Source: Anaerolineae bacterium | Lineage (GTDB): Bacteria > Chloroflexota > Anaerolineae > Anaerolineales > Anaerolineaceae | Assembly: GCA_013178095.1 (NCBI GenBank) | Contig: JABLXK010000003.1 | Location: 186,001-250,000 of the forward strand | Direction: 5' to 3' | Length of the DNA: 64,000 nt | The notes under the pieces: generated by a model | Database searches by the model: none | What the model saw: the letters and a program-made list of their open reading frames with translations, nothing else | Told to the model about the DNA's origin: nothing | Made by a program: the position numbers and the translations under genes | Shown: positions 20,773-61,636 of the stretch, one piece after another | Numbering within the stretch: the first letter of the stretch is position 1 | Layout of the letters: the number at the start of each line of letters is the position of its first letter

Positions 20773-20784
20773 TGGATCGCCTTT

Positions 20785-22338
20785 CTATACCGGCGGATTG
20801 CCATGTTTGCGCGCCGGATTCTGGACCTGTTTATCCTTGATAATTTCGAGCGCTCTGATGATCTTCATACGGGTTTCGGAGGGCAGGATGATTTCATCGC
20901 AAAAACCGGCGTTGGCTGCCGCGTATGGATTCAGGTATTTCTCTTTGTATTCCTGAATGACCCTTTCCCGTTCCGCATCCGGGTTTTCCGCGTTCTGGAT
21001 GCGCCTGGTGTGCAAAACACTGGCGGCGCCTTCAGCGCCCATCACGGCAATTTCGGCTGTGGGCCAGGCGTATGTAACATCGGTGCCGAGATATTTGCTG
21101 CTCATCACGATGTACGCGCCGCCGTAGGCTTTGCGCGTCACCACGCTCACCTTGGGCACGCTGGCTTCGGAATAAGCGAACAGTACCTTGGCGCCGTGGC
21201 GGATGATGCCACGGTGCTCCTGCTGGACTCCCGGCAGAAAGCCGGGCGAGTCCACGAAGGTCACCAGGGGGATGTTGAAGCAATCGCAGAAACGCACGAA
21301 GCGGCAGATTTTATCGGAGGCGTCGATATCGATCACGCCGGCCATCGCGCTGGGTTCTTGCGCTACTATGCCGACCGGATTGCCGTTCATGCGCGCCAGC
21401 CCGATGATGGCATTGGGGGCGAAAACCGGCTGCAGTTCCAGGAAAGAATCGCGGTCGACCACGCGCTGGATGATCTCATGCATGCTGTAGGGCTGCGTTT
21501 CCTCTTCCGGGATGATCGTATCCAGAACAGCATCCATGCGGAAAGGCTCGTCCGCGGGTGGGTACGAGGGCGGGTTATCCATGTTGTTGCCGGGCAGGTA
21601 ACCAACGAGCGCGCGGCAGAGCGCCAGCGTTTCATGCTCGTCGCGGGCTGTCAGGCTGGCCACGCCGCTGGTTGCCAGGTGCACCTGCGCGCCGCCCAGG
21701 CTTTCAAAATCCACTTCCTCCCCGGTGATGGTCTTGATCACGCTGGGTCCGGTGATGAACATATAGGATTGCTTTTCTACCATCAAAATGAAATCCGTCA
21801 GGGCGGGGGAGTAAGCCGCGCCGCCGGCGCAGGGGCCCATGATGATACTGATCTGGGGCACTACACCGGAATAAAGCGCATTGCGGCGGAAGATCTCGGC
21901 GTAACCGCCCAGGCTGTGGATGCCCTCCTGGATGCGCGCGCCGCCGGAATCGATCAGGCCGATGATGGGCGCGCCGTTTTGTACGGCCAGGTCCATCACG
22001 CGGCAGATCTTATGGCTTTGCATCTCGCCCAATGAACCGCCGTTGGCGGTGAAATCCTGCGCATAAACAAAAACCGGGCGTCCGTCGATTTTGCCGTAAC
22101 CGGTTACCACCCCATCACCCAGGATGCGGCTTTGCGGATCATCCGTCATATCATTGCGCTGGAGGACAAAAGGCTCGAGCTCCTGGAAAGAAGAAATATC
22201 AAGCAATTCCCCCAGGCGCTCGCGGGCGGTTAACTTGCCTTTCTCGTGCTGTTTGGCAATACGTTCCTCGCCGCCGCCGAGCAAAGATAATTTTCGGAAC
22301 TTTTTCAAATCATCATTCTTTGATTGCGTTGAGCTCAT
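20785..22338 (-). CDS. mmdA: Methylmalonyl-CoA decarboxylase alpha (carboxyltransferase) subunit
   Basis: A 517-residue biotin-dependent carboxyltransferase with the paired crotonase-like halves. It transfers the carboxyl of a CoA thioester, most likely (S)-methylmalonyl-CoA, to biotin. The N-terminus (GKLTARERLGELLD) is typical of methylmalonyl/propionyl-CoA carboxyltransferases. GGARIQEGIHSLGGYAEIF and MGPCAGGAAYSPALTDF form the first oxyanion region, and FVDSPGFLPGVQQEH and RKAYGGAYIVMSSK the second. With the beta, biotin and anchor genes following on the same strand, the set makes a complete sodium-pumping decarboxylase that would yield propionyl-CoA and a sodium gradient. A propionyl-CoA carboxylase role is less likely because no biotin carboxylase gene is present. 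Confidence 0.9.
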   Translation of the reverse strand: MSSTQSKNDDLKKFRKLSLLGGGEERIAKQHEKGKLTARERLGELLDISSFQELEPFVLQRNDMTDDPQSRILGDGVVTGYGKIDGRPVFVYAQDFTANGGSLGEMQSHKICRVMDLAVQNGAPIIGLIDSGGARIQEGIHSLGGYAEIFRRNALYSGVVPQISIIMGPCAGGAAYSPALTDFILMVEKQSYMFITGPSVIKTITGEEVDFESLGGAQVHLATSGVASLTARDEHETLALCRALVGYLPGNNMDNPPSYPPADEPFRMDAVLDTIIPEEETQPYSMHEIIQRVVDRDSFLELQPVFAPNAIIGLARMNGNPVGIVAQEPSAMAGVIDIDASDKICRFVRFCDCFNIPLVTFVDSPGFLPGVQQEHRGIIRHGAKVLFAYSEASVPKVSVVTRKAYGGAYIVMSSKYLGTDVTYAWPTAEIAVMGAEGAASVLHTRRIQNAENPDAERERVIQEYKEKYLNPYAAANAGFCDEIILPSETRMKIIRALEIIKDKQVQNPARKHGNPPV

Positions 22339-22391: not shown

Positions 22392-22446
22392 TTGACATTC
22401 GTATTGAATTATTGTAATATGTGATATGTAATATATCACATATTAC
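22392..22446 (+). promoter_or_regulatory. Promoter overlapped by a perfect inverted-repeat operator (GntR autoregulation)
   Basis: TTGACA (22392-22397), a 17-base spacer and TAATAT (22415-22420) make a near-consensus sigma-70 promoter. A perfect 14-bp inverted repeat, GTAATATGTGATAT and its reverse complement with a 5-base spacer (22414-22446), covers the -10 box and the start site. The GntR gene begins 26 bases downstream, so repression by its own product, and control of the downstream cluster, is likely. Confidence 0.75.
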
Positions 22447-22472: not shown

Positions 22473-23144
22473 ATGGAAAAAGCCCCAAAAAGCAAACCAG
22501 CCGCGTTGACCGATTGGACCTACCAATACCTGAAAAAAAGCATCCTGAACCTGGATTTTCACCCCGGGCAACAGCTCCATATTGAGGATTTCACTGAAAA
22601 GTTGGAAGTCAGCCGCACACCGGTGCGCGAAGCCTTCTTGCGGCTGGCTACCGAGGGACTGATTGAGGTCCGCCCGCGGGTGGGCTACTTCGTGTCCACC
22701 ATCACCGAGCAGGACATTTACGATCTGTTCGAGGCGCGCGAGATTGTGGAAACGCGCGCTGCCCGCCAGGCTGCCAAGGCGCTTACCGATGAGGATCTGG
22801 AAAATATCAAGACAATCATGGAAGAATCCCAAAAAGCGGTCAGAGCAGGAGATTTTGACCGATTCCTGGAATTTGAAGTTCGGTTCCATGAATATATCAA
22901 GAAACATATCACCAACAAACGGTTGATCGCGTTTATGGATAGCCTGAACGATTTAACCTACCGGGAACGCGTTTTATCCACCCGTTCAGTTGAAAATGTG
23001 GAAAAAACGATCATCGAGCACAATTGCATCGTTGAAGCGCTTCTGCAGCGTGATGAGAAAAAAGCGGAAGAATGCATGGCGAAGCATCTTGAAAATGTTC
23101 GCGAAAGACTGATCGCGCTTATTCAAAAAAATCCAAATCTATAA
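22473..23144 (+). CDS. GntR-family transcriptional regulator (FadR/FCD subfamily)
   Basis: A 223-residue regulator with an N-terminal winged helix (about residues 12-75; VSRTPVREAFLRLATEGL is the recognition-helix region) and a C-terminal all-helical FCD ligand domain (about 85-215), which often binds a carboxylic acid through a metal. It is the first gene of a long rightward run for a sugar or cyclitol pathway and has an inverted repeat over its own promoter. The ligand is presumably a pathway intermediate such as a keto-hexuronate; that is inference from FCD-domain regulators of hexuronate genes. Confidence 0.92.
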   Translation: MEKAPKSKPAALTDWTYQYLKKSILNLDFHPGQQLHIEDFTEKLEVSRTPVREAFLRLATEGLIEVRPRVGYFVSTITEQDIYDLFEAREIVETRAARQAAKALTDEDLENIKTIMEESQKAVRAGDFDRFLEFEVRFHEYIKKHITNKRLIAFMDSLNDLTYRERVLSTRSVENVEKTIIEHNCIVEALLQRDEKKAEECMAKHLENVRERLIALIQKNPNL

Positions 23145-23163
23145 AACAAAGGAGAAAGCAATT

Positions 23164-24132
23164 ATGAGCAAGTGGCAGTTGCCCCCGGAAGGCGGGCACA
23201 TGGATCGCCCAACGGGCATCTACCTGCAAACGATGACCGGCAAAGAAGTGCAAGCCCGTCTGGAAAAGAATGATCTCATCATTATTCCCATCGGCAGCAC
23301 CGAAGCGCACGGTCCGCATGCCTGCAGCGGCGAGGATACTTTCCTCGTAACGCGCATGGCCGAAGCAGTCGCGCAGAAAACCGGCTGCACGGTGGCCGAA
23401 CCGATCTGGTACGGTTCTCACCCTTACCATCACCTGGGGATGCCTGGGACGATTGTGGTCCCTGAAGAGACCTTCGCGGCCAATCTGCGCGCGGTCATGG
23501 CGGGTTTCTGGAACGCTGGTTTCCGCAAGCAGATCCTGTTCAACGGGCACGGCCAGGATTATGTCATCCCCATGGCCATGCACCAGTTCGGCAAAAAATA
23601 TCAGGTTCCCATGCTCCTGATCAACGTCAATTACTGGTTCACCATCAAAGAACACATTCGCGACAAAGCGCATGGCGGGCCTTTTGAAACTCCCTTCGTA
23701 CACGGCGATGAAGTTGAAACCTCATTCTCCATGGCGCTCTTCCCCGAGATGATCCACATGGAAGACGCGGTCGACACCAAAGGCCAGAGCCTCTTCCCGC
23801 CCGGTCACATTGACCTCTCCGGTTCTGCCTACAACCTGCCGATCCCCTTCTGGCAGCACGTGGGCGCCTCCACCATCGAGCCAGTGGCCACCCCCGAGGG
23901 TGTGGTCGGCAGCGCCACGCTGGCCGATCCTGCCAAAGCCATTGGCGGCGTTTCCGCCGTGTTGGATTACATGGAAAAACTGGTCAACGATATCATGGCC
24001 ATGTATCCCGCCGGGAAGCTGCCCCCTGTTGATAAAGTGACCCAACGTTCCAAGGAGGAAATTGAAGCCTTGTTGAAGGGGCCCTTTGAAAAGGACGGCA
24101 AACATCTTTATACCGTAGCGTATCCACCCTAA
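23164..24132 (+). CDS. Creatininase-family hydrolase, probable 3-dehydro-scyllo-inosose hydrolase (IolN-like)
   Basis: A 322-residue creatininase-fold metal hydrolase. IPIGSTEAHGPHACSGEDT (residues 41-59) gives the expected metal ligands Glu47, His49 and Asp58, and FNGHGQD supplies a further His. The N-terminus and the WYGSHPYHHLGMPGT block agree, as far as I can recall, with IolN of the Thermotoga inositol pathway, which opens the ring of a diketo-inositol to 5-keto-L-gluconate. The adjacent IolM-like dehydrogenase and later IolO-like epimerase support this over creatinine hydrolysis. A GGAG Shine-Dalgarno precedes the ATG, and the gene begins 19 bases after the GntR stop. Confidence 0.75.
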   Translation: MSKWQLPPEGGHMDRPTGIYLQTMTGKEVQARLEKNDLIIIPIGSTEAHGPHACSGEDTFLVTRMAEAVAQKTGCTVAEPIWYGSHPYHHLGMPGTIVVPEETFAANLRAVMAGFWNAGFRKQILFNGHGQDYVIPMAMHQFGKKYQVPMLLINVNYWFTIKEHIRDKAHGGPFETPFVHGDEVETSFSMALFPEMIHMEDAVDTKGQSLFPPGHIDLSGSAYNLPIPFWQHVGASTIEPVATPEGVVGSATLADPAKAIGGVSAVLDYMEKLVNDIMAMYPAGKLPPVDKVTQRSKEEIEALLKGPFEKDGKHLYTVAYPP

Positions 24133-24149
24133 ATCGGCAACATTCATAA

Positions 24150-24180
24150 CCGGGGACCAGGCATTCCGCCTGATCCCCGG
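24150..24180 (+). terminator. Intergenic hairpin between hydrolase and dehydrogenase genes
   Basis: CCGGGGACCAGGC pairs with GCCTGATCCCCGG with one mismatch. There is no strong T-tract directly after it, so it may be an mRNA-stabilising or attenuating hairpin rather than a full terminator. Confidence 0.45.
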
Positions 24181-24218
24181 TCTGTTCACTGGACTAATTT
24201 TATTTATTGGAGTTTGAA

Positions 24219-25394
24219 ATGAGCAATGACATTGCAACAAAGAACAAGGGAATGAAAGTTGGCGCAGCGGTGATGGTTGCGCCGGGAAAATTGGAATACC
24301 AGGAACTGCCTTATCCGGATCATCTGGAACCGGGCGCCATGATCGTGAAAATGGAAATGTCCGGAATCTGCGGCACCGATAAACATGCTTTTAAAGGAGA
24401 AACCACACTTTACGGAGGCACGGAAGCCGAGCAGGACATGGTTTTCCCGACAGTGCACGGGCACGAAAATTCCGGCATTGTGGTTGAGATGAACGGCGAT
24501 AACATCGAATACAGCGGCAAGCCCCTCAAGGTGGGCGATCGCGTGACCAACTGCCCCAATGTGATCTGCGGGGAATGCTGGTACTGCCGCAGCGTGCACG
24601 GCTATCCGTATTGCTCGAACCACCAGGGCATCGGCATGACCTATTATGCTGACCGCTTCCCCTACATTGTCGGTGGTTGGGCGGAATATATGTACCTGCC
24701 GCCCAAGGCCTGGGTTTACAAGGTCCCCGAATACATCCCGGTGGAATATTCCTGCATGTCCGAGTTGTTTGTGGTGACAGCGCTGTTGGACCGCGCCAAG
24801 GAATACGCGGCTTACGCCGGCAAGGGCTTCCATTTCGGCGACACGGTAGTGGTGCAGGGCGCCGGCCCGATCGGCATGCTGATGGTCGCCAAGGCGCGCA
24901 TGTTGGGCGCCGGCAAAATCATCGCCCTGGATGGCTTTGACAAGAAACTGGAACTGGCGAAAGAGTTCAGCGCCGACGTGACGATTAATATCAAGGATAT
25001 GCCGGATAAGGATTTGGTGGAAGCTATTCGCGCTGAGACCGAAGGACGCGGCGCAGATGTGGTGGTCGAAACCGTTGGCCGCCCGGAGGTGGTGCGGGTC
25101 GGACTGGAAATGCTGCGCCGCGGCGGAACCTACCTGGAAACCGGCAACTTTGCGGATACCGGCGAAGTATCCCTCAATGTGCATCGCCACATTGCCGCCA
25201 AGAACGTGCTGATCTATGGCAACACCAACCATCCGCACGACGGTTACTATGCCGCTTTCGACATGATGTGGCGCAACCGCGATCGCTTCCCGATTGAGAA
25301 ACTCATCACGCACCGTTTCAAACTGGAACAGGCTCAGGAAGCCATGCAGAAATCGTTTGAAGAGGATGCCCTGAAGGTAGTTTTTGAAATGTAG
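24219..25394 (+). CDS. Zinc-dependent dehydrogenase, probable scyllo-inosose 3-dehydrogenase (IolM-like)
   Basis: A 391-residue medium-chain dehydrogenase. Catalytic zinc ligands are predicted at Cys51 (ICGTDKH), His82 and Glu83 (HGHENSG), and a structural zinc site at the Cys cluster 117-132. The Rossmann motif GAGPIGMLMVAK is followed by ALD, so NAD is the likely cofactor. The ATG at 24219 was chosen because GGAG lies six bases before it; an in-frame TTG at 24207 overlaps that site. Next to the IolN-like hydrolase, the likely reaction is oxidation of scyllo-inosose to the diketo-inositol, as in the Thermotoga IolM step. A sorbitol or threonine dehydrogenase role cannot be excluded from sequence alone. 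Confidence 0.75.
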   Translation: MSNDIATKNKGMKVGAAVMVAPGKLEYQELPYPDHLEPGAMIVKMEMSGICGTDKHAFKGETTLYGGTEAEQDMVFPTVHGHENSGIVVEMNGDNIEYSGKPLKVGDRVTNCPNVICGECWYCRSVHGYPYCSNHQGIGMTYYADRFPYIVGGWAEYMYLPPKAWVYKVPEYIPVEYSCMSELFVVTALLDRAKEYAAYAGKGFHFGDTVVVQGAGPIGMLMVAKARMLGAGKIIALDGFDKKLELAKEFSADVTINIKDMPDKDLVEAIRAETEGRGADVVVETVGRPEVVRVGLEMLRRGGTYLETGNFADTGEVSLNVHRHIAAKNVLIYGNTNHPHDGYYAAFDMMWRNRDRFPIEKLITHRFKLEQAQEAMQKSFEEDALKVVFEM

Positions 25395-25429
25395 GTTGTG
25401 ATTCACCAGGGAAGAGGAGTATTTGGCAT

Positions 25430-26926
25430 ATGAACAATCCAGTACCGTTGCTCGAAATGAAAAATATATGCAAAACTTTTCCAGGTGTTAAGGCCTTGGA
25501 TCATGTTGATTTTGATCTTTTCCCTGGTGAAGTACATGTCCTGGTGGGGGAAAACGGAGCCGGAAAATCGACTTTGATGAAAGTGCTGGCCGGCGCATAT
25601 CCGCGCGACGCAGGCGAAATTTTTGTTGAACAAAAAGCACAACCGCGTTGGAATCCGACTGTCGCGCGTGAAAACGGCGTAGCGATGGTTTACCAGGAGT
25701 TCACGCTGCTTCCTTTCCGCAATGTGGCGGAGAATATTTTCCTGGGCCGCGAGAAAAAACATGCCGGATTGTTTCTTAACAAATCCTTGATGCATACACA
25801 AGCAAGCGCATTGCTCAAATCCATCGGCGTGAACGTGGATACGCGCTGCCCTTTGCTTGAATTAGGCGTTGCCGAGCAGCAGATGGTTGAAATTGCCAAA
25901 GCTTTGGCTATGGATGCACGCATCTTGGTGCTGGACGAACCTACCTCTGCCTTAAGCATGCGGGAGATCGAACAGTTATTCTCGACTGTGAGGAAGCTAA
26001 AGGAAAAGGGAGTCGGAATCATCTATATCTCTCACCGGCTTGAAGAGATCAAACAGATTGGGGACCGGGTAACGGTGATGCGCGATGGTCAATTGATCGG
26101 TACGCGCAAAATTGATGAGGTTTCCATCGATGACGTAATTCGCATGATGATCGGCCGCGAGATTGAAAAACTTTACCCGCGTCATTATTGTCCTCCGGGA
26201 GAAGTCGCGTTATCCGTAAAGGGATTGAAATCCGGAAAGAAAGTCCACAACGTCAATCTAGAGATTCGTTTTGGTGAGATTGTCGGCCTATCCGGTCTGG
26301 TCGGGTCGGGTAGAACTGAAACAGCCCGGGCGATTTTTGGGCTGGATTCCATGACTGCTGATGATCTGGAGATCCTGGGAAAGAAATACAAACATATTGA
26401 TCCTTCGCAAGCCGTGGATATCGGGTTGGGATTGATCCCGGAAGATCGCCGGCGCGATGGATTATTCCCCATCCTTTCAATGGAAAAGAATTTGGTAATG
26501 GTCTGCCTGCGCAAGATCTTTCCGAGCGGGATTATGAAGCCTGCCATTGAGCGCAGCACAGCCAATGAATACGTCCGAAAATTTAATATTCAACCGCCTG
26601 CGCTGGATCGTTTTGTCCATTATCTATCCGGCGGAAACCAGCAAAAAGTCGTGATTGGCAAGTGGTTGGCAGCCAAACCGCGTGTGATCATCATTGATGA
26701 ACCCACCCGTGGCATTGATGTTGGAGCGAAGTCCGAAGTGCATGCATTCATGGACCTGCTTGCAAACTCCGGCCATGCAATCCTGATGATCTCTTCTGAA
26801 ATGCCGGAGATTTTGGGGATGAGCGATCGCATTTACGTTATGCATGAAGGCAAGGTGGCGGGTGAATTTCCCCGAGGCACCGATTCCGAAGAAATCCTGC
26901 GCCGCGCAATGGGAGTTCGAGCATGA
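25430..26926 (+). CDS. Sugar ABC transporter ATP-binding protein (RbsA/MglA type)
   Basis: A 498-residue double ATPase of the CUT2 (ribose/inositol) class. The first half has Walker A GENGAGKST (40-48) and DARILVLDEPTSALS. The second half has the degenerate Walker A GLVGSGRTE usual for the family, the signature LSGGNQQKV and Walker B VIIIDEPTRG. It powers uptake through the two permeases that follow. It overlaps the first permease gene by four bases (ATGA). CUT2 systems import pentoses, galactose, inositol and similar unphosphorylated sugars, which suits the catabolic genes around it. Confidence 0.95.
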   Translation: MNNPVPLLEMKNICKTFPGVKALDHVDFDLFPGEVHVLVGENGAGKSTLMKVLAGAYPRDAGEIFVEQKAQPRWNPTVARENGVAMVYQEFTLLPFRNVAENIFLGREKKHAGLFLNKSLMHTQASALLKSIGVNVDTRCPLLELGVAEQQMVEIAKALAMDARILVLDEPTSALSMREIEQLFSTVRKLKEKGVGIIYISHRLEEIKQIGDRVTVMRDGQLIGTRKIDEVSIDDVIRMMIGREIEKLYPRHYCPPGEVALSVKGLKSGKKVHNVNLEIRFGEIVGLSGLVGSGRTETARAIFGLDSMTADDLEILGKKYKHIDPSQAVDIGLGLIPEDRRRDGLFPILSMEKNLVMVCLRKIFPSGIMKPAIERSTANEYVRKFNIQPPALDRFVHYLSGGNQQKVVIGKWLAAKPRVIIIDEPTRGIDVGAKSEVHAFMDLLANSGHAILMISSEMPEILGMSDRIYVMHEGKVAGEFPRGTDSEEILRRAMGVRA

Positions 26927-27906
26927 AGTTTACAAATCGGAAAAAAATTTTTCGCTTGATCCTTGAAAAGATCCCGACAGTATTCTGGATTTTGCTTTTG
27001 ATGGTTATTTATTTTTCTGTCTCGAGCTCTAATTTTCTGACTCTGGGAAATGCGATCAACCTCTCGCGGCAGGGCGCCATCCTGTTGACTCTTTGTTTGG
27101 GCGTGGTGGTTGTGAAGATCACCGGCGGGATGGATCTTTCCAATGGCGCCGTGATGTCGCTGTGTGGCATGATCATGGCATGGGCTCTGGTAAACCTGAA
27201 CGTACCTGTTTATTTGGCGATTTTGATTTCAATAATTATGGGAATCATTTTGGGTACATTAAACGGATTTTTCGTTTCGATACTCGGAATTCCATCTTTT
27301 ATAGCGACGCTGGGAACCCAGGGGATTGCGGTTGGTTTGTCATTGGGCATGAATAACGGCAATGTCATAGCCGGATTGCCGAAGGTTTTTTACGAAATAG
27401 GAAACGGCAGCATTCTCGGAATTCCCTGTCCATTATGGATTTCCCTGCTTGTATTTGCGTTGACCAATCTCATACTTACCCAAACACCTTTGGGAGTATA
27501 CATCTATGCCTTGGGCGGTAATGAAGAAGCCTTGAAGCTATCCGGCAAACCTGCCTGGATATATAAAATATTGGCTTACTCCTATTCCGGGCTGACCGCT
27601 GGAATCGCGGCTTGTATTCTGACTTCCCGCAATATGGCTGCGCAGCCTACGGTTGGCTCAGGCATGGAGTTCGAAGCCTTTGCCGGTGTTGTCCTGGGCG
27701 GGAGTTTCATTGCCGGGAAAGGAACTGCTATCGGAGCTGTCTTGGGCGCCCTTTTTATCCTGGTGCTGCGCAATGGCTTGAATCTTTTAGGGATTCCTAC
27801 TTACCTTCAATTGGCGATTTTCGGAACGGTGTTGATCAATGCGATTGTCCTGTCTACTTTGGTTGAACGTTGGGTGCAGAAGATGCGGGACGAGGAGCGT
27901 GAATAA
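26923..27906 (+). CDS. Sugar ABC transporter permease 1 (RbsC type)
   Basis: A 327-residue polytopic permease of the BPD_transp_2 family with about nine or ten hydrophobic segments. The KITGGMDLSNGAVMSL motif and the later GMEFEAFAGVVLGG motif are typical of RbsC-like permeases. It is translationally coupled to the ATPase and to the next permease, with shared stop/start bases on both sides. Two different permeases imply a heterodimeric channel rather than the homodimer of the ribose system. Confidence 0.93.
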   Translation: MKFTNRKKIFRLILEKIPTVFWILLLMVIYFSVSSSNFLTLGNAINLSRQGAILLTLCLGVVVVKITGGMDLSNGAVMSLCGMIMAWALVNLNVPVYLAILISIIMGIILGTLNGFFVSILGIPSFIATLGTQGIAVGLSLGMNNGNVIAGLPKVFYEIGNGSILGIPCPLWISLLVFALTNLILTQTPLGVYIYALGGNEEALKLSGKPAWIYKILAYSYSGLTAGIAACILTSRNMAAQPTVGSGMEFEAFAGVVLGGSFIAGKGTAIGAVLGALFILVLRNGLNLLGIPTYLQLAIFGTVLINAIVLSTLVERWVQKMRDEERE

Positions 27907-28904
27907 TGGATCAGCAAACATCGAAAAAAGGTGAAGAAGTGGTTAAATCACAATCGCGCAACGAATCCAACCGTGTTTGGAAATATATTTCCCGATTTTC
28001 CCGGATTGGAGCGCTGGTTTTATTGGGAGTAGCCATATCACTTCTCAATCCAAACTTCCTGAAAATCTCAAACATTATTAATGTTTTGCGGCAAGCCGCG
28101 CCTCAGATCATTATTTCCTTCGGCATGACGATTATTTTCCTTACCGGCGGGATTGACCTCTCGTTGGGGTCGGTGGTCACCTTAACAAGCGTGATCGCCG
28201 GGTATTTTTTGACACAAACGAGCCTGCCCTGGTGGTGCGCAATTGCCGGCGCCATGGCGGTTGGCGCGCTTTCGGGATTTATCACGGGCCAATTAATTGC
28301 ATTTGTAAAGCTGCCTCCGGCAGTAGCCAGCTACGGAATGTTGTGGGTTGGCAAAGGGATTGCTTTTGCCATCATGGGAGCTTCCCCTTTCTTCAGCTTT
28401 GCGGATCAATTCAGGCATTTGGGAAGAGGTTATTTTCTGGGAATTCCAATGCCGATCTGGATTGTATTGGTGATTGCTTTAATACTTGGTTGGTTATTGA
28501 AGTACACAACTCTGGGTAGAAGTCTTTACGGGATTGGCGCCAATCCCAGGGCTGCCAAAGCATCAGGCATTAAAGTATCCAGGACGCTTGTGAGTGCGTA
28601 CATGCTGAGCGGAACCCTGGCGGCGATTGGAGGCATCATCCTGGCAGCCCGCCTGAATGCGGTCGACCAGGACTTGGGAGCTTCTTTTCTGCTTCCGGCC
28701 ATCGCCAGCCCGGTTATGGGCGGTACGAGCATGGCCGGCGGACAGGGGGGCGTGGGGGGAACCATTATCGGTTCCTTGATCATGATTGTTGTCACCAATG
28801 GGATGAATTTACTGGGTATCAATTCCCTTTGGCAGCAGCTCGTAACCGGTGTGGTTGTAGTCCTCTCGGTCTGGCTGGATGTTGTGATGAGAAAACGTAA
28901 TTAA
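27906..28904 (+). CDS. Sugar ABC transporter permease 2 (RbsC type)
   Basis: A 332-residue second permease of the same family, with a longer cytoplasmic N-terminus (about 35 polar residues) and the motifs FLTGGIDLSLGSVVTL and LPAIASPVMGGTSMAGG. Its ATG shares an A with the previous TAA stop. It is clearly divergent from permease 1, so the pair is old. The 110 bases that follow, before the binding-protein gene, carry a good AAGGAG Shine-Dalgarno for the next gene but no clear hairpin. Confidence 0.93.
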   Translation: MDQQTSKKGEEVVKSQSRNESNRVWKYISRFSRIGALVLLGVAISLLNPNFLKISNIINVLRQAAPQIIISFGMTIIFLTGGIDLSLGSVVTLTSVIAGYFLTQTSLPWWCAIAGAMAVGALSGFITGQLIAFVKLPPAVASYGMLWVGKGIAFAIMGASPFFSFADQFRHLGRGYFLGIPMPIWIVLVIALILGWLLKYTTLGRSLYGIGANPRAAKASGIKVSRTLVSAYMLSGTLAAIGGIILAARLNAVDQDLGASFLLPAIASPVMGGTSMAGGQGGVGGTIIGSLIMIVVTNGMNLLGINSLWQQLVTGVVVVLSVWLDVVMRKRN

Positions 28905-29014
28905 TCGTTTATTTATTGTTGACAATTCAGAAAAAAGTGAGGAGGTGCGTATTCGACGAAATTGAGACGCTTGAAAAATAACAATATTGAATAAAGAAAA
29001 AAAAGGAGATCTAG

Positions 29015-30034
29015 ATGAAAAAAGTAAGCTTACTTTCGATTTTTTGCCTGGTGATTGCCATGAGCTTTTTAGCTGTGGCTTGCCAACCTGCAGCCGCCCC
29101 CGCTGAGGAAGCCCCAGCCGCTGAAGAAGCAGCAGCGGAAGCGCCCGCTGAAGAGGCTCCAGCTGAGGAAGCTCCTGCGGCTGAGCCATTGACCTTTGGT
29201 TTGGTTACAAAGGCATTGAACAATCCCTTCTGGGAAATGATGCACGAAGGCGCGGTGAAGGTCGCTGAGGCCAACAACGTAGAGATCATCTATTTGGCGC
29301 CTACCAAAGCCAATAACCTGGAAGAACAAACCCGTTTGGTTGACGACCTGATCGCGCAGAAAGTGGACGGCATTGTCCTGGTGCCGGTTGATTCCACCGG
29401 TATTGTGCCGGCTATCGAACGCGCCAACGCAGCGGGGATTCCGGTTGCCCTGGCAAACACCAAAGCCACTGGCGGTGAATATATTACTTTCTCAGCAGTT
29501 GAGAACTATGATGCCATGAGCATGTTGGTGGAAGAAGCAGTGAAGACGCTTGGTGAAAAAGGCAAAGTCATCATTCTGGAAGGTACAGCGGGCGCTCAAA
29601 CTGCGATCGATCGCAAAGCCGGCGTGGATGATGTTCTAGCAAAATACCCGGACATCGAAGTATTGGCTTCCCAGACTGCTGATTTCCAGCGTGCGCAAGG
29701 TTTGACTGTCATGGAAAACTTGCTGCAAGCTTATCCTGAGATCGATGCTGTCATTGCCTGCAATGATGAAATGGCTTTGGGCGCGGTTGAAGCTTTGGAT
29801 GCTGCCGGACGTTTGGCGGATACCATGGTCTTCGGTTTCGATGGCAATAATGATGCATTGAAAGCCGTATCCGAAGGCCGCATGGTCGCAACCTGCTTCC
29901 AGAACCCTCAGATGCAAGCCGGCGACGCTGTCCAGGCTTTGATCGACTACATCGGTGGAAAAGAAGTAGCAGAACGGATCCAGACAACCGCTATTTTGGT
30001 TACCAAGGATAACGTTGCGGAATTCATCAAGTAA
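29015..30034 (+). CDS. Sugar-binding lipoprotein of the ABC transporter (RbsB type)
   Basis: A 339-residue periplasmic-binding-protein-1 family receptor. The N-terminus is a lipoprotein signal with lipobox LAVAC (Cys near 23), then a 35-residue Ala/Glu/Pro linker built of AEEAPA-like repeats, then the two-lobed binding domain starting at PLTFGLVTKALNNPFWEMM. The linker would hold the receptor away from the membrane, as is common in monoderm or Chloroflexota lipoproteins. A strong AAGGAG Shine-Dalgarno lies just before the ATG. The ligand is probably the cyclitol or sugar degraded by the neighbouring enzymes. Confidence 0.93.
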   Translation: MKKVSLLSIFCLVIAMSFLAVACQPAAAPAEEAPAAEEAAAEAPAEEAPAEEAPAAEPLTFGLVTKALNNPFWEMMHEGAVKVAEANNVEIIYLAPTKANNLEEQTRLVDDLIAQKVDGIVLVPVDSTGIVPAIERANAAGIPVALANTKATGGEYITFSAVENYDAMSMLVEEAVKTLGEKGKVIILEGTAGAQTAIDRKAGVDDVLAKYPDIEVLASQTADFQRAQGLTVMENLLQAYPEIDAVIACNDEMALGAVEALDAAGRLADTMVFGFDGNNDALKAVSEGRMVATCFQNPQMQAGDAVQALIDYIGGKEVAERIQTTAILVTKDNVAEFIK

Positions 30035-30067
30035 GTAAAAAAATTCAGTTTTTGAGCGAAAGATAAT

Positions 30068-30104
30068 GGTTTGGGTTGCCGTGCGAATCACGGCAACCCA
30101 AACC
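30068..30104 (+). terminator. Strong hairpin after the binding-protein gene
   Basis: A perfect 16-bp stem, GGTTTGGGTTGCCGTG and its reverse complement around a CGAAT loop, lies 33 bases past the stop. Such hairpins after binding-protein genes often protect the upstream message and lower expression of downstream genes. No long T-run follows. Confidence 0.6.
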
Positions 30105-30238
30105 CGAAAAATAACTTTCTGGACATGTAAAACCTGCGCGTTAAATCTATGCTCTATTTTTACTAATACGAGATTTCGCTATACCTGATCGATAACATGC
30201 TTTCAGGCTAAGCATATTGAACCCGGGAGAACCTATCT

Positions 30239-31066
30239 GTGAGAAAGTTAAATCACGCTGGAGTTGCACTTTCCCCGCGACCATCTAAATTTGGACCGTT
30301 ACTTTTTGCGGGCGATTTGAATGAAGGATTGAATCGAGCCAGTCAGTATGGATTTGAGTTTGTCGAATTGAGCATCCGCTCAACCGATGACGTTAATCCC
30401 TCTGACTTGAATGATAGATTGGAAAAATTGGATCTTAAAGTTTCCGCCCTGGCCACCGGGCAAGCCTGTCTATTTGATTGTTTGTGCGTTGGATCATCCG
30501 ATCATCAAAAACGCAGGAATGCAGTTGAACATTTAAAAAGAATTACTTTGCTGGCAAAAGCCATTCACTCCGCATCAGTCATCATCGGGGGAATTCGCGG
30601 ATTCCTATCCGGTGAAGCAGAAGAACGACTGCAGAATTATAAAAATGGCGTTGAGGCTGTAAGAGAGTGCGCCTTTTTCATGGAAGAACAAGGAATTCAG
30701 CTCCTGATTGAGCCAATCAATCGGTACGAAATGAATTGGATTCTGACCGCCCAACAGGGACTGGAATTTCTTTCTGATGTCGGAATTGGTTCGGTTAAAT
30801 TATTGCTGGATACCTTTCATATGAATATCGAGGAATCCGATACCCTGGCTGCTTTGCGGGATTGCGGCGATCGTTTGGGGTACGTTCATTTTGCTGATAA
30901 TACGCGTCACGCGCCCGGTACGGGGCAGATCGATTTTATATCTATATTGCGCACTCTGAAATCTATCTCGTATACAGGGCCAATGGTGGCGGAAATTTTA
31001 CCTATCCCTGATGATTTGACAGCGATCCGATATACTGCCGAATTTTGGGAAAAGGTGCAAGCGTAA
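30239..31066 (+). CDS. TIM-barrel sugar epimerase, probable 5-keto-L-gluconate epimerase (IolO-like)
   Basis: A 275-residue AP-endonuclease-2-fold sugar isomerase/epimerase. The blocks FAGDLNEGLNRASQYGFEFVE, ALATGQACL, VIIGGIRG, LIEPINRYE, LLDTFHMNIEE and HFADNTRHAPGTGQIDF agree with my recollection of Thermotoga IolO, which turns 5-keto-L-gluconate into D-tagaturonate. The metal-binding Glu/Asp/His residues in those blocks are intact. The start is GTG with GGGAGA eight bases upstream. A strong hairpin separates it from the transporter, so it may have its own promoter. Alternatives are hydroxypyruvate isomerase or a ketose 3-epimerase, but the RYE...HMNIEE combination with IolM/IolN neighbours favours IolO. 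Confidence 0.75.
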   Translation: MRKLNHAGVALSPRPSKFGPLLFAGDLNEGLNRASQYGFEFVELSIRSTDDVNPSDLNDRLEKLDLKVSALATGQACLFDCLCVGSSDHQKRRNAVEHLKRITLLAKAIHSASVIIGGIRGFLSGEAEERLQNYKNGVEAVRECAFFMEEQGIQLLIEPINRYEMNWILTAQQGLEFLSDVGIGSVKLLLDTFHMNIEESDTLAALRDCGDRLGYVHFADNTRHAPGTGQIDFISILRTLKSISYTGPMVAEILPIPDDLTAIRYTAEFWEKVQA

Positions 31067-31099
31067 TTATTGTTTCGAAACAATGAAAGGAATGAGTCT

Positions 31100-32191
31100 A
31101 TGTCAAATAATTTTAAAAGTCCCCTGCACGAGACGGTATCGACTACCAAGACGGATGTGTGGAACGATTCCTGCTCGACCAGGGAGTTGACCTACGCAAT
31201 CGAGAACGGGGCAGTGGGAGCGACCACCAACCCGACTATCGTGGCTGCTGTGCTGAAAGAGGAAATGCCCGTGTGGGGGCCGCGCATCCGGGAATTGATC
31301 GCGCAAAATCCGGATTGGTGCGAGGCGCAAATTTCGTGGCAAATCATTGAGGAAATGGCGGTAAAAGGCGCAAAATTGCTTTTCCCGGTATTCCAAAAAG
31401 AAAATGGCCGCAAAGGAAGGATTTCCATCCAGACCAATCCCGTAAACTACCGCAATGCCAAATTGCTGGCGGAACAGGCCATTCACTTCAATACGCTGGC
31501 CCCCAACATCCAGGTCAAAATCCCCGTGACTGCGGCAGGCGTGAAAGCGATTGAAGAAGCGGCCTATAACGGCGTGAACATCAACGCGACCGTCTGTTTC
31601 ACGGTGCCGCAAGCCATTGCGGTGGCCGAAGCGCTGGAACGAGCCATGAACCGCCGCGAAAAGGAAGGCAAGCCGGTGGATAACATGTTCCACGTGTGCA
31701 CCATCATGATCGGCCGCACGGACGACTGGATCAAGGTGGTGGCTAAGAAAGAGGGTATCACGGTCACCCCGGGGGACATGGATTGGGCGGGCATTGCCTG
31801 CTTCAAGAAAGCTTACGGCATCTACCAGCAGCGCAAATACCGCACGCGCCTGCTGGCAGCCGCGTACCGCCATCACATGCATTGGTCGGAATTGATCGGC
31901 GGGGATGTGGTCCTGACCATCCCTTATCCGTGGCAGGTGTTGTTCAATAATTCGGATATCGAGGTCAAGGAGCGTATGCATAATCCCGTAGCCCCGGCCA
32001 TCGTGGATTCGCTCTACCAGCATTTTGTTGAATTCCGCAAAGCTTACGACGAAGACGGCCTGAATGTGGAAGATTTTGACACATATGGCGCCACCGTACG
32101 CACGCTGCGCGGATTTATCGATTCTTACCATGAGTTGCAGGGTGTCATCCGCGATTTCATGCTCCCCAACCCGGACGTAAAGAAGGCGTAA
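31100..32191 (+). CDS. Transaldolase-fold enzyme, possibly an aldolase on a keto-sugar acid
   Basis: A 363-residue class I aldolase of the transaldolase family. The Schiff-base Lys is predicted as Lys140 in IQVKIPVT; Asp23, ATTNPT (41-46) and IGRTDDW (204-210) are the other family landmarks. By eye, Gln111 (ISIQTN) stands where true transaldolases have a catalytic Glu, as in fructose-6-phosphate aldolase, and the FSF segment is replaced by FTV. It is longer than both standard classes. Family chemistry is cleavage of a ketose between C3 and C4, leaving a dihydroxyacetone unit. The ATG at 31100 has AAAGGA upstream; the frame is open ten codons further to a TTG. The gene sits between the IolO-like epimerase and an aldehyde dehydrogenase. 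The substrate is inferred, not shown. Confidence 0.78.
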   Translation: MSNNFKSPLHETVSTTKTDVWNDSCSTRELTYAIENGAVGATTNPTIVAAVLKEEMPVWGPRIRELIAQNPDWCEAQISWQIIEEMAVKGAKLLFPVFQKENGRKGRISIQTNPVNYRNAKLLAEQAIHFNTLAPNIQVKIPVTAAGVKAIEEAAYNGVNINATVCFTVPQAIAVAEALERAMNRREKEGKPVDNMFHVCTIMIGRTDDWIKVVAKKEGITVTPGDMDWAGIACFKKAYGIYQQRKYRTRLLAAAYRHHMHWSELIGGDVVLTIPYPWQVLFNNSDIEVKERMHNPVAPAIVDSLYQHFVEFRKAYDEDGLNVEDFDTYGATVRTLRGFIDSYHELQGVIRDFMLPNPDVKKA

Positions 32192-32192
32192 T

Positions 32193-33572
32193 ATGCAGCC
32201 AGGCATCGATGAGTTGATCCAGCGGGCGCGCAGCGCCCAGAGAGAAGTTGAGTACTGGCCGCAGGAAAAAGTGGACCTGATGGTCGCAGCGGCTGGTTGG
32301 GAAACCTACAAGAACGCGGAAAAAATTGCCCGGTTGGCAGTGGACGAGACCGGCATGGGCGTGTACGAACATAAAGTGCTCAAACATCAAAAGAAGACTC
32401 TCGGCACCTTGCGGGACATGCAGGGCGTCAAGACAGTTGGCGTGATCGAGGAGGATCCCCAAAAGGGTCTGATCAAGGTTGCCAAGCCAGTGGGCGTGAT
32501 CGGTGCGTTGACGCCGGTCACCAACTGCGAGGCTACTTTGCCATCCAAGAGTTTGCCGGCTTTAAAATGCCGCAACGCGATCATTTTTGCGCCGCATCCA
32601 CATGCCAAACAAACCGCCGCGCTGGTGGTATCCACCCTGCGCGAGGGTCTGCGGAAGGCTGGCGCTCCCCTGGATTTGATCCAGACAATCGAAGAGCCCA
32701 GTGTGGAATTATCCAAGGAACTGATGAGCAAGGTCGACCTGGTGATCGCTACCGGCGGCGGGCCGATGGTCAAATCGGCATATTCCAGCGGCACCCCGGC
32801 ATACGGCGTGGGGGCGGGCAACGCGGTGGTGATCGTGGACGAAACCGCCGACCTGCCGGCAGCCGCTGAAAAGATTTGCCAGGGCAAGATTTTCGACAAT
32901 GCTACTTCCTGCTCGTCGGAAAACTCGATCGCGCTGCAGGCAGGCATTTACGAGCGCATGCTGGAATGCCTCAAAGCCGTGGGCGGGTATTGGTGCGGCG
33001 AGGACGAGCGCGCCAAACTGCAGCAAACCATGTGGCCGGACGGCATTCACCTGAACAAGGATATCGTCGCCCAGCCGGTGGCGAAAATCGCAGGCATGGC
33101 CGGCGTTGCCATCCCGGAGGGCACCAAGTTCCTGATGGTGGCCGGCAAGCACGTGGGCGACGACGACCCCTTCTGCAAAGAGAAGCTCTCGCTGGTGTTG
33201 ACGGTTTGGAAATACAATGAATTCGAAGAAGCCATTCGCCTGGTCGAGGATATCACTTCCTTGAACGGACGGGGACATTCCTGCGGCATCCACACCGCCA
33301 GCGAAGCGCACATCCTGGAATTGGGATTGCGCGCCAAGGTCAGCCGCATGATGGTCAATCAATCCCACAGCCTGGGGAACAGCGGCAACTACAATAACGG
33401 CATGCCTTTCACATTGACGCTTGGGTGCGGTACCTGGGGAGGGAACATCACCAGCGAGAATGTCCACTGGAAGCATTACATGAACGTCACCTGGATTTCC
33501 AAACCGATCGACCCGGTGATTCCGAAGGAGGAAGAAATATTTAAAGAAGTCTGGAAAAAATTTGGAAAATAA
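32193..33572 (+). CDS. CoA-acylating aldehyde dehydrogenase
   Basis: A 459-residue aldehyde dehydrogenase of the acylating (EutE/AdhE/SauS-like) group. Cys240 in NATSCSSENS is the predicted nucleophile, and the C-terminal LTLGCGTWGGNITSENVHW block is the group signature. These enzymes convert an aldehyde, NAD and CoA to an acyl-CoA. The start lies two bases after the preceding stop with GAAGG upstream, so it is coupled to the transaldolase-fold gene. The specific aldehyde is unknown: acetaldehyde, succinate semialdehyde and sulfoacetaldehyde enzymes all belong here. No shell-targeting extension is evident, so a microcompartment role is unlikely. Confidence 0.85.
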   Translation: MQPGIDELIQRARSAQREVEYWPQEKVDLMVAAAGWETYKNAEKIARLAVDETGMGVYEHKVLKHQKKTLGTLRDMQGVKTVGVIEEDPQKGLIKVAKPVGVIGALTPVTNCEATLPSKSLPALKCRNAIIFAPHPHAKQTAALVVSTLREGLRKAGAPLDLIQTIEEPSVELSKELMSKVDLVIATGGGPMVKSAYSSGTPAYGVGAGNAVVIVDETADLPAAAEKICQGKIFDNATSCSSENSIALQAGIYERMLECLKAVGGYWCGEDERAKLQQTMWPDGIHLNKDIVAQPVAKIAGMAGVAIPEGTKFLMVAGKHVGDDDPFCKEKLSLVLTVWKYNEFEEAIRLVEDITSLNGRGHSCGIHTASEAHILELGLRAKVSRMMVNQSHSLGNSGNYNNGMPFTLTLGCGTWGGNITSENVHWKHYMNVTWISKPIDPVIPKEEEIFKEVWKKFGK

Positions 33573-33626
33573 CCATTCTGTTATTCAAATAATTCACAAT
33601 TAATTATTCCGCCGTACCTCTTTAAA

Positions 33627-33676
33627 CTGATCCCATTTGGCGGTTATTAAAAGCTGGCAACCTCAAATGGGATCAG
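33627..33676. repeat. Perfect 13-bp inverted repeat with a 24-base loop
   Basis: CTGATCCCATTTG at 33627-33639 has an exact reverse complement at 33664-33676. It lies between the aldehyde dehydrogenase and the reductase genes. No T-tract follows, so it may be a regulatory stem or a binding site instead of a terminator. Confidence 0.55.
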
Positions 33677-33741
33677 AAAATTCTGCCTGCAAGTAAACAA
33701 GGTTATTATTAACCACTTACTTATTCAAAGAAAGGTAGAGA

Positions 33742-34638
33742 ATGAAATCTAGAATTGGATTCATCGGTCTGGGGATCATGGGCCGTCACATGTCCCGCCA
33801 TCTGATCAAGGCAGGGTATGCATTGAGCGTTTATGACCTCAACACCTCCGCGGTGGAAGAGCTGGTGGGCCAGGGGGCAACTGCTTGCGCCAATTGCCGC
33901 GAAGTCGCGGCAGCCAGCGACGTGGTGATCTCGATGGTGCCGGATTCACCCGACGTGGAAAAGGTGGCCCTGGGCGAGAACGGACTGATTGAAGCAGCCC
34001 GTTCCGGTTTGATCTACATCGACATGAGCACCATCGCGCCGGCTGTTTCGCAAAAAGTGGCGGCAACTCTGGGAGCGAAGGGCGTGCGCTGCCTGGATGC
34101 GCCGGTCAGCGGGGGTGAAACCGGCGCGCTGAATGCCAGCCTTTCAATCATGGTCGGCGGTGATGAAGGATTGTTCCGGGAAATGCTGCCGGTCTTCGAA
34201 GTGATGGGTAAAACCATCACGTATTGCGGCAAGAACGGCGCCGGCCAGACTGTGAAAGCCTGCAACCAAATCCAGGTTGCCATGAATTTCATCGGGCTGG
34301 CCGAGGCGCTGGTGTTGGGAACCAAGGCTGGGGTGGACCCGGCGGTGATCCTAAAGGTGTTGCAAGGCGGTTATGCGCAGACGCGCGTGATGGACGTGCG
34401 CGGACCGAAGATCATCAAGGGTGAATTCGAACCCGGTTTTAAAAGCAAACTCCATTTCAAGGATTTGAACATTATCATGGATACCGCTCGGGATTTAAAA
34501 GTGCCGCTGCCGGCATCGACGGTCGCGCACGAATTGTTCAGCGCCATGCTGTCCAGCGGCCGGGGCGAATTGGATCACTCGGCAGTCATCCAGGTTTTGG
34601 AGGGTATGGCGGGTGTGGAAGCCAGGAGCCGCCAGTAG
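33742..34638 (+). CDS. 3-hydroxyisobutyrate dehydrogenase-family reductase, tartronate-semialdehyde-reductase-like
   Basis: A 298-residue beta-hydroxyacid dehydrogenase. The N-terminal GFIGLGIMGRHM is the Rossmann nucleotide site, DAPVSGGETGAL (119-130) the carboxylate-binding loop, and Lys172 in VKACNQ the catalytic base. The SGG loop matches enzymes acting on small carboxylates such as tartronate semialdehyde (GarR/GlxR) and differs from the sulfonate-type loop of YihU. An AAAGG Shine-Dalgarno precedes the ATG. As last gene of the cluster it could reduce tartronate semialdehyde to glycerate. Methylmalonate- or succinate-semialdehyde-related substrates remain possible. Confidence 0.85.
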   Translation: MKSRIGFIGLGIMGRHMSRHLIKAGYALSVYDLNTSAVEELVGQGATACANCREVAAASDVVISMVPDSPDVEKVALGENGLIEAARSGLIYIDMSTIAPAVSQKVAATLGAKGVRCLDAPVSGGETGALNASLSIMVGGDEGLFREMLPVFEVMGKTITYCGKNGAGQTVKACNQIQVAMNFIGLAEALVLGTKAGVDPAVILKVLQGGYAQTRVMDVRGPKIIKGEFEPGFKSKLHFKDLNIIMDTARDLKVPLPASTVAHELFSAMLSSGRGELDHSAVIQVLEGMAGVEARSRQ

Positions 34639-53081: not shown

Positions 53082-53190
53082 CTCTCATCTTCCAGAATCC
53101 CGATCACGGTTCTGCCGGATTTGGCACCGGCGCTCTTGCGCGGTTGCCGAGGTATCTGCGGGCCGGTCCCTCCACCTCTCTTGATGAGTG
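53082..53190 (-). promoter_or_regulatory. SAM-I (S-box) riboswitch
   Basis: The minus strand reads CTCATCAAGAGAGGTGGAGG, GACCGGCCC, TCGGCAACC, GGTGCCAAATCCGGCAGA and GATGAG in order, which are the conserved elements of the SAM-I aptamer. The P1 helix pairs CTCATC (53183-53188) with GATGAG (53084-53089). With the terminator just downstream it should switch off metH and the Hcy-methyltransferase/MetF gene when S-adenosylmethionine is plentiful. Confidence 0.95.
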
Positions 53191-61499: not shown

Positions 61500-61563
61500 C
61501 GAGACAAAAGCTATAAAGAAAAATATGATAACAAGGCGAATAATTAGAGATTAAAATGAAACA

Positions 61564-61636
<73 letters not shown>

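What the first reader, a model, noticed from the sequence alone, without database searches (positions are those of the whole stretch)
22473..34638. Possible new keto-inositol route ending in retro-aldol cleavage to dihydroxyacetone and tartronate semialdehyde
The sequence shows, in one rightward run, IolN-like, IolM-like and IolO-like enzymes, a CUT2 transporter, a transaldolase-fold enzyme, an acylating aldehyde dehydrogenase and a GarR-like reductase. Known chemistry of the Thermotoga IolM/IolN/IolO steps ends at D-tagaturonate. Cleaving a 5-keto-hexuronate between C3 and C4, the bond split by transaldolase-family enzymes, gives dihydroxyacetone and tartronate semialdehyde, and the latter is the substrate of GarR-type reductases. 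That would bypass the usual UxaB/UxaA/KdgK steps, none of which is here. The combination is, to my knowledge, undescribed. The initial IolG dehydrogenase is also missing from the window.
Basis: partly seen in the sequence, partly recalled or inferred. Interest (0 to 1): 0.82.

Follow-up and report, generated by a model that had tools for sequence, protein, structure and literature searches.

The report
Transaldolase route for opened inositol rings
Eleven genes on one strand, shared with the cultured bacterium Pelolinea submarina, are predicted to break down an inositol-type ring by opening it and then splitting the resulting sugar acid with a transaldolase-type enzyme, where sister clusters likely use a transketolase; this would be a carboxylic-acid counterpart of the known pathways that split the plant sulfosugar sulfoquinovose.

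Summary
IolN and GarR pass curated cut-offs; the IolM-like, IolO-like and acylating ALDH proteins do not, and the transaldolase-fold protein (TAL) fits no NCBIfam equivalog. Pelolinea submarina's finished genome has all 11 genes in order (70-89% identical). Two comparisons support a C3-C4 split. (1) This TAL subfamily lies beside myo-inositol genes in 24 of 41 loci (40 distinct); in the sampled class, 11 of 14 genomes with TAL and IolD lack the kinase IolC. There it would cut 2-deoxy-5-keto-gluconate to malonate semialdehyde, so the non-deoxy acid would give tartronate semialdehyde, GarR's substrate. (2) All 4 sampled sister genomes (of 298) with the nearest IolN/IolM carry a split transketolase, GAPDH-like and PGK-like genes instead of TAL-ALDH, mirroring sulfo-TAL and sulfo-TK. 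UxaA and KDPG aldolase are missing from the genome and from Pelolinea; a glycerate kinase is present. I revise two points: D-tagaturonate has the wrong geometry for a transaldolase, and transfer to glyceraldehyde-3-phosphate is likelier than free dihydroxyacetone. Nothing is assayed; the ALDH's role, entry dehydrogenase and substrate are open. New variant of a known kind.

The parts
22392..22397 (+). TTGACA, -35-like element of the cluster promoter (putative)
   Evidence: sequence; the surrounding block is also upstream of gntR in Pelolinea L019
22414..22446 (.). exact 14-base inverted repeat GTAATATGTGATAT / ATATCACATATTAC, putative GntR operator
   Evidence: identical in L019 from 1213; core TATGTGATAT also upstream of gntR in G106, G082, G091
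22473..23144 (+). GntR/FCD-type regulator
   Evidence: PF00392, PF07729; 78% in Pelolinea
23164..24132 (+). IolN, cyclic 1,3-diketone hydrolase of the creatininase fold (predicted)
   Evidence: NF041098 537 bits, cut-off 245
24207..25394 (+). IolM-like zinc dehydrogenase
   Evidence: NF041097 167 bits, cut-off 450; 79-82% in the four sister clusters
25430..26926 (+). CUT2-type ABC transporter ATPase
26923..27906 (+). ABC transporter permease 1
   Evidence: PF02653
27906..28904 (+). ABC transporter permease 2 (not scanned against HMMs)
   Evidence: 78% to the gene in the same place in Pelolinea
29015..30034 (+). sugar-binding protein
   Evidence: PF13407
30068..30104 (.). hairpin (16-base arms) after the binding-protein gene, attenuator-like
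   Evidence: sequence; a similar hairpin lies at this place in Pelolinea
30239..31066 (+). IolO-like ketose 3-epimerase
   Evidence: NF041099 220 bits, cut-off 300; best solved relative TM_0416
31070..32191 (+). transaldolase-fold enzyme (TAL), predicted 5-keto-hexonate transaldolase; ATG at 31100 is the likelier start
   Evidence: PF00923; model pLDDT 94.9; K140, R206, R257, Q111, M203 invariant in the 160 other rows aligned
32193..33572 (+). CoA-acylating aldehyde dehydrogenase, SauS-like
   Evidence: NF047625 568 bits, cut-off 600; best solved relative an acetylating succinate-semialdehyde dehydrogenase
33742..34638 (+). GarR-type tartronate semialdehyde reductase
   Evidence: TIGR01505 357 bits, cut-off 340.75

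Best explanation
This one-strand cluster of eleven genes likely imports a cyclitol-type compound, opens its ring to a 5-keto-hexonate, and would then split that acid between C3 and C4 with a transaldolase-type enzyme into tartronate semialdehyde and a three-carbon unit that is predicted to pass to glyceraldehyde-3-phosphate, giving fructose-6-phosphate. Shown by my calls: the genes and their order, conservation in Pelolinea, the transaldolase family, predicted fold and catalytic lysine, the family's link to myo-inositol genes, the swap for a transketolase module in sister genomes, and no match for UxaA and KDPG aldolase. Inferred steps: the IolM-like enzyme makes a 1,3-diketone from an inosose-like ketone; IolN hydrolyses it to a 5-keto-hexonate; the IolO-like epimerase sets the carbon next to the keto group; TAL forms a Schiff base at Lys140 and cuts; GarR reduces tartronate semialdehyde to D-glycerate, which the MOFRL-type glycerate kinase encoded elsewhere would phosphorylate; the acylating ALDH may oxidise part of the semialdehyde to tartronyl-CoA to save energy. 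The TAL donor is probably 5-keto-D-gluconate (the 2-hydroxy analogue of 2-deoxy-5-keto-D-gluconate) or fructuronate, not D-tagaturonate.
For: IolN and GarR pass curated cut-offs. All 11 genes in Pelolinea. At least 2 of IolA/B/D/E/G (tblastn E <= 1e-10) lie beside this TAL in 24 of 41 loci, IolD itself in 22; two loci are one record, so 40 are distinct. In 298 class genomes, IolC over its cut-off is in 3 of 14 TAL+IolD+ genomes and in 46 of 61 IolD+ genomes without TAL (Fisher p = 2.8e-4, phylogeny ignored). Lys140 and both phosphate-site arginines (TalB R181, R228 = R206, R257) are kept in all 160 other rows aligned. The 4 sister genomes with IolN of 78-82% identity (G106, G082, G048, G091) carry transketolase N and C halves, IolO-like, type II GAPDH-like and PGK-like genes in one order (families), each with another, higher-scoring PGK elsewhere. 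UxaA without a match in 4 of 4 genomes; KDPG aldolase without a match in the own genome and Pelolinea. MOFRL glycerate kinase in 4 of 4. DHA kinase missing in 15 of 29 TAL genomes, which favours transfer over free DHA for those. Both kinds of split are known in sulfoglycolysis (PMC9594981, passages).
Against: No activity has been measured. IolM-like, IolO-like and ALDH are below curated cut-offs. No entry dehydrogenase: no IolG over cut-off. In G184 and G244 IolC lies directly next to TAL, so the enzyme may not always act on the unphosphorylated acid. TalB's Glu96 is Gln111, as in the aldolase FSA (Gln59), and Phe178 is Met203, so aldolase chemistry is possible; the own genome and Pelolinea have DHA kinase. 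If IolN and IolO act as in Thermotoga the product is D-tagaturonate, which has the wrong geometry. Seventeen of 41 TAL loci lack two iol genes. KDPG aldolase is present in the sister genomes G106 and G082. A probable member of the family is induced on a sulfosugar in Faecalicatena (PMC11659671). The ALDH has no assigned step; TAL was seen with IolN and IolM in only two whole clusters, plus the partial contig L023.
Confidence: 0.5

Rival explanations
1. One reading: IolM/N/O act as in Thermotoga, and the TAL-fold enzyme is a true aldolase that releases free dihydroxyacetone and tartronate semialdehyde from D-tagaturonate.
For: Gln111 resembles FSA rather than TalB; the own genome and Pelolinea encode DHA kinase; IolN passes its cut-off; the Faecalicatena sulfoquinovose cluster that holds a probable family member also has DHA kinase (PMC11659671 section 3.3 part 1).
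Against: D-tagaturonate has the L,L,R arrangement, not the L,R needed at ketose C3/C4 (selectivity recalled); 15 of 29 TAL genomes lack DHA kinase; IolM and IolO are below cut-offs.
Confidence: 0.15
2. TAL keeps its iol-operon substrate, 2-deoxy-5-keto-gluconate, and the ALDH and GarR-like enzymes handle malonate semialdehyde (to malonyl-CoA or 3-hydroxypropionate).
For: TAL active-site residues are the same in both settings; the ALDH's nearest model (SauS) handles sulfoacetaldehyde, the sulfonate analogue of malonate semialdehyde (the analogy is mine).
Against: No IolD match in the own genome and no IolB or IolE model hit among the 10 cluster proteins scanned (the IolO-like protein gives only 46 bits to IolE, cut-off 290); GarR passes the tartronate semialdehyde cut-off; IolN chemistry keeps the 2-hydroxyl (recalled).
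Confidence: 0.12
3. The cluster degrades another acid-tagged ring or sugar (sulfonated, or a lactone or ether of a cyclitol), and the ALDH is a real sulfoaldehyde dehydrogenase.
For: The ALDH is close to the SauS cut-off; a transaldolase with this family's residue numbers is induced on sulfoquinovose in Faecalicatena (PMC11659671); related clusters carry Amidohydro_2 and DUF6282 genes.
Against: No SQ isomerase or sulfonate gene among the 10 scanned cluster proteins; IolN passes as a diketo-inositol hydrolase.
Confidence: 0.08
4. TAL is only a spare pentose-phosphate transaldolase that happens to sit here.
For: The only other transaldolase-fold hit in the genome is a divergent paralog lacking the TalB R181 equivalent.
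Against: Conserved place in Pelolinea, replaced by a transketolase module in four sisters, and repeated association with iol genes.
Confidence: 0.05

Closest known systems
Thermotoga maritima IolG-IolM-IolN-IolO inositol route (Rodionova 2013, known here through the reference in PMC12632266 and NCBIfam; paper itself not read)
   Same: IolN equivalog; an IolM-like and an IolO-like partner
   Different: No IolG over cut-off, IolM/IolO below cut-offs, no UxaA or KDPG aldolase match; transaldolase, acylating ALDH and GarR follow instead
sulfo-TAL and sulfo-TK sulfoglycolysis (PMC9594981 and PMC11659671, passages and sections)
   Same: An acid-bearing ketohexose is split by a transaldolase or a split-gene transketolase, with transfer to GAP; the aldehyde product is reduced or oxidised; CoA-acylating oxidation is known in sulfo-TK
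   Different: Carboxylate instead of sulfonate; long 363-aa TAL with Gln111 rather than the short SF-TAL with Glu; upstream enzymes open a ring, no SQ isomerase; the transketolase version has GAPDH-like and PGK-like genes
canonical myo-inositol pathway (IolG, E, D, B, C, then J or DUF2090, A)
   Same: This TAL subfamily lies inside such operons in other genomes
   Different: In 11 of 14 sampled TAL+IolD+ genomes IolC is not found, so TAL would replace kinase plus aldolase; no IolB, IolD or IolE in the window cluster
E. coli galactarate/glucarate branch (GarR, glycerate kinase; recalled)
   Same: Tartronate semialdehyde reduced to glycerate
   Different: There it is made by the aldolase GarL from 5-keto-4-deoxy-glucarate, not by a transaldolase

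Membership tests
Thermotoga-type IolMNO inositol pathway | IolN 3-dehydro-scyllo-inosose hydrolase | tested here: met
   NF041098 537 bits, cut-off 245
Thermotoga-type IolMNO inositol pathway | IolM scyllo-inosose 3-dehydrogenase | tested here: not met
   NF041097 167, cut-off 450
Thermotoga-type IolMNO inositol pathway | IolO 5-keto-L-gluconate epimerase | tested here: not met
   NF041099 220, cut-off 300; TM_0416 is nonetheless the best solved relative
Thermotoga-type IolMNO inositol pathway | IolG inositol dehydrogenase in the genome | tested here: not met
   best 144 bits, cut-off 355; genome 94% complete
Thermotoga-type IolMNO inositol pathway | uronate end steps (UxaA, KDPG aldolase) | tested here: not met
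   PF04295 and PF01081 without a match in own genome and Pelolinea; they ring in 5 and 8 of 14 control genomes
Transaldolase/FSA superfamily (PF00923) | fold and Schiff-base lysine | tested here: met
Classical transaldolase (TalB type) | Glu96 and Phe178; curated equivalog score | tested here: not met
   Gln111 and Met203, invariant; no NCBIfam transaldolase cut-off reached
Sulfofructose transaldolase pathway (sulfo-TAL) | short SF-TAL enzyme and SQ isomerase in the cluster | tested here: not met
   about 363 aa against 218-226 aa for 8bc2-8bc4; no SQ isomerase among the 10 of 11 cluster proteins scanned
Canonical iol pathway | IolD and IolC in the genome | tested here: not met
   no match in G000 at E <= 1e-100 (IolD) or E <= 1e-60 (IolC)
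Tartronate semialdehyde reductase (GarR) | curated equivalog score | tested here: met
   TIGR01505 357 over 340.75; the narrower NF008592 is 338.5 under 397
Acylating sulfoacetaldehyde dehydrogenase (SauS) | curated equivalog score | tested here: not met
   NF047625 568 under 600
Transaldolase acting on 5-keto-hexonates | the activity itself | not testable with these tools
   needs an enzyme assay

The most novel reading that the evidence does not exclude
Cyclitol degradation has carboxylate twins of sulfo-TAL and sulfo-TK. An opened inositol ring (5-keto-hexonate) is split without any kinase, either by a new long transaldolase subfamily (C3 transfer, tartronate semialdehyde, then glycerate or an acyl-CoA) or by a split transketolase (C2 transfer, tartrate semialdehyde, then a GAPDH-like/PGK-like pair that makes ATP and tartrate). 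The same transaldolase subfamily makes a kinase-free version of the classical myo-inositol pathway in several phyla, which surveys that require IolC would miss.
Probability: 0.42. Interest if true: 0.82.

Novelty: new variant of a known kind. Interest (0 to 1): 0.68.

Why it matters
Sulfoglycolysis showed that an acid-tagged sugar can be split by pentose-phosphate-type enzymes; the same logic for carboxylated sugars from inositols would be a new branch of carbohydrate breakdown. A cultured, fully sequenced organism (Pelolinea submarina) makes it directly testable.

Tried and rejected
Chance grouping rejected: 11 of 11 genes conserved in Pelolinea. Both flanks are also syntenic there, so conservation alone does not prove function.

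Search for an unlinked uronate pathway: UxaA and KDPG aldolase without a match. UxaB, UxuA, KdgK and DHDPS-type KDG aldolases were not searched, so a different uronate route is not excluded.

Residues that separate the IolN-linked TALs (window, L019) from the 24 iol-operon TALs: ten or so positions differ, none of them among the catalytic and phosphate-site residues I mapped.

ALDH context: only 7 of 298 class genomes (own included) at E <= 1e-90, next best 51% identical, so co-occurrence gives no hint of its substrate.

The Na+-decarboxylase-type genes upstream (18864-22338, minus strand) as a sink for an acyl-CoA: considered; the carboxyltransferase is also next to the Pelolinea cluster (80%), but so are the downstream neighbours (65-92%), so I treat it as plain synteny.

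Literature: searches (0 papers; 4; 130, 20 listed; 23, 10 listed; 8; 20, 8 listed; 0) in the open PMC library; no listed title or abstract start reports a transaldolase on inositol-derived or keto-hexonate substrates. I did not read every listed paper, and most subscription papers are not held. Papers: PMC11659671 abstract and outline, section 3.4, passages, section 3.3 part 1 of 2; passages only of PMC9594981, PMC9007349, PMC12632266, PMC13259622 and PMC9430895. Rodionova 2013 not read.
Full report
What is there. The interval 22473-34638 holds eleven open frames on the + strand. Ten of the eleven were scanned; the second permease was not. IolN (NF041098, 537 bits, cut-off 245) and GarR (TIGR01505, 357, cut-off 340.75) pass curated cut-offs. 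The IolM-like (167 of 450), IolO-like (220 of 300) and acylating ALDH (SauS model, 568 of 600) proteins do not, and the transaldolase-fold protein (TAL) reaches no NCBIfam transaldolase cut-off although it is clearly PF00923. Upstream of the regulator gene lie TTGACA at 22392 and an exact 14-base inverted repeat at 22414-22446. The same repeat precedes gntR in Pelolinea, and its core TATGTGATAT precedes gntR in G106, G082 and G091. I read this as the cluster's operator (inference).

Conservation. Pelolinea submarina MO-CFX1 (complete genome) has all eleven genes in order: GntR 78, IolN 88, IolM 89, ATPase 85, permeases 77 and 78, binding protein 83, IolO 70, TAL 71, ALDH 82, GarR 79% identical, with a UlaA-like PTS IIC gene added before GarR. 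A third, truncated contig (L023) has an IolM end (96% over 82 residues), a transporter, an Amidohydro_2, a cupin and a DUF6282 gene, IolO (56%) and a TAL start (98% over 92 residues).

The TAL family. I examined 41 loci of this TAL (22, 19; two are the same record). In 24, at least two of IolA, IolB, IolD, IolE, IolG (tblastn E <= 1e-10) lie in the fetched DNA, and IolD itself in 22; some IolA and IolG hits are only 23-40% identical and were not checked one by one. Five representatives scored above their cut-offs as IolD, IolE, IolG, IolB and CoA-acylating methylmalonate-semialdehyde dehydrogenase. Seventeen loci do not meet the two-gene test; L020 and L080 are short contigs, and L004, L014, L084 and L091 show one such gene. 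In 298 genomes of the class, TAL (E <= 1e-60) is in 20, IolD (E <= 1e-100) in 75, IolC over its cut-off in 57. IolC is present in 3 of 14 TAL+IolD+ genomes and in 46 of 61 IolD+ genomes without TAL (Fisher p = 2.8e-4; shared ancestry is ignored). Against this, in G184 and G244 IolC sits directly beside TAL. Known pathways use IolC followed by IolJ or the DUF2090 domain (PMC9007349, passages). A transaldolase acting on 2-deoxy-5-keto-gluconate itself would replace both and give malonate semialdehyde, IolA's substrate. This is inference, but it fits the gene content.

The sister clusters. In the 298 genomes the nearest IolN relatives after the window are in G106, G082, G048 and G091 (78-82%; the next is 66%). 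They share GntR (49-51%), IolN and IolM (79-82%), but carry transketolase N half, transketolase C half, an IolO-like epimerase, a type II GAPDH-like and a PGK-like gene, in that order. In G048 this module lies on a second contig, so linkage there is assumed. G106 adds a LeuB/tartrate-dehydrogenase-like gene. Each of the four has another, higher-scoring PGK elsewhere, so the cluster copy is a paralog; Pelolinea too has two PGKs, the own genome one. The TAL module and the transketolase module thus occupy the same place. By analogy with sulfo-TAL and sulfo-TK, where a transaldolase or a split transketolase moves C3 or C2 units of sulfofructose to GAP (PMC9594981, passages), I propose that both modules split the same kind of keto-hexonate. 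The transketolase branch would give tartrate semialdehyde, which the GAPDH-like/PGK-like pair would oxidise with ATP gain. The TAL branch would give tartronate semialdehyde, reduced by GarR and perhaps oxidised to a CoA ester by the ALDH. CoA-acylating oxidation of the split product is known in sulfo-TK (PMC11659671, passages).

Which keto-hexonate. Thermotoga IolO converts 5-keto-L-gluconate to D-tagaturonate (PMC12632266, passages). Fischer bookkeeping shows that neither has the L,R (3S,4R) arrangement that transaldolase and transketolase donors need (that selectivity is recalled), whereas 2-deoxy-5-keto-D-gluconate and 5-keto-D-gluconate do. The scyllo 1,3-diketone is symmetric, so opening it on the other side gives 5-keto-D-gluconate directly; a diketone from another inositol could reach it through the epimerase. 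The divergent IolM-like and IolO-like proteins allow this. It is a prediction.

After the split. A MOFRL glycerate kinase is present in the own genome, Pelolinea, G106 and G082. UxaA has no match in these four; KDPG aldolase has none in the own genome and Pelolinea but is present in G106 and G082. The own genome is 94% complete. UxaB, UxuA and KdgK were not searched.

A lead from the literature. In Faecalicatena grown on sulfoquinovose, a second, unexplained transaldolase (F2) was induced; its catalytic and sugar-orienting residues are given as D23, K140, Q111, N162 and T201 (PMC11659671, section 3.4; section 3.3 part 1). These are the residue types and positions of this family (D23, Q111, K140, N162, T201), so F2 is probably a member. 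I could not fetch its sequence. That cluster also has DHA kinase and glycerol dehydrogenase, which would suit an aldolase. This weakens any claim that the family acts on carboxylates only.

Verdict. Nothing has been assayed.

Noticed in passing
window 18864-22338, minus strand: Na+-pumping decarboxylase-type genes (carboxyltransferase, a 149-aa protein with a biotin-carrier-like EAMKM motif, OAD beta subunit) diverge from the cluster; the carboxyltransferase is 80% identical beside the Pelolinea cluster.
   Followed up: partly
L002 (own genome, contig 4, 57403-58392): A second transaldolase-fold protein, 27% identical, also with Gln in place of Glu96 but lacking the R181 equivalent, beside an ABC permease.
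   Followed up: partly
L118 and L119 (G106, G082): An IolG over its cut-off lies about 7 kb from a second IolN (about 62% to the window's) in the genomes that also carry the transketolase cluster, so two IolN pathways seem to coexist.
   Followed up: no
L153 (Pelolinea, about 1.044 Mb): A GAPDH-II-like/PGK-like gene pair (66% and 49% to the G106 cluster copies) with no transketolase hit in the fetched 20 kb.
   Followed up: no
L098/L117 (G091), L023, L154 (G048): DUF6282 genes (all three) and Amidohydro_2 genes (G091, L023) lie between the transporter and the catabolic genes, possibly for a lactone or conjugate.
   Followed up: partly
L019 12636-13919: UlaA-like PTS IIC gene inside the Pelolinea cluster; PTS partners were not looked for.
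   Followed up: no
window 53082-53190, minus strand: SAM riboswitch (RF00162, 85.5 bits).
   Followed up: no
window 61563-61637, minus strand: tRNA-Lys (ctt) gene, the only tRNA found in the window.
   Followed up: no
window 41268-43016, + strand: Protein with CHAP and Rha78A-like N-terminal domains.
   Followed up: no
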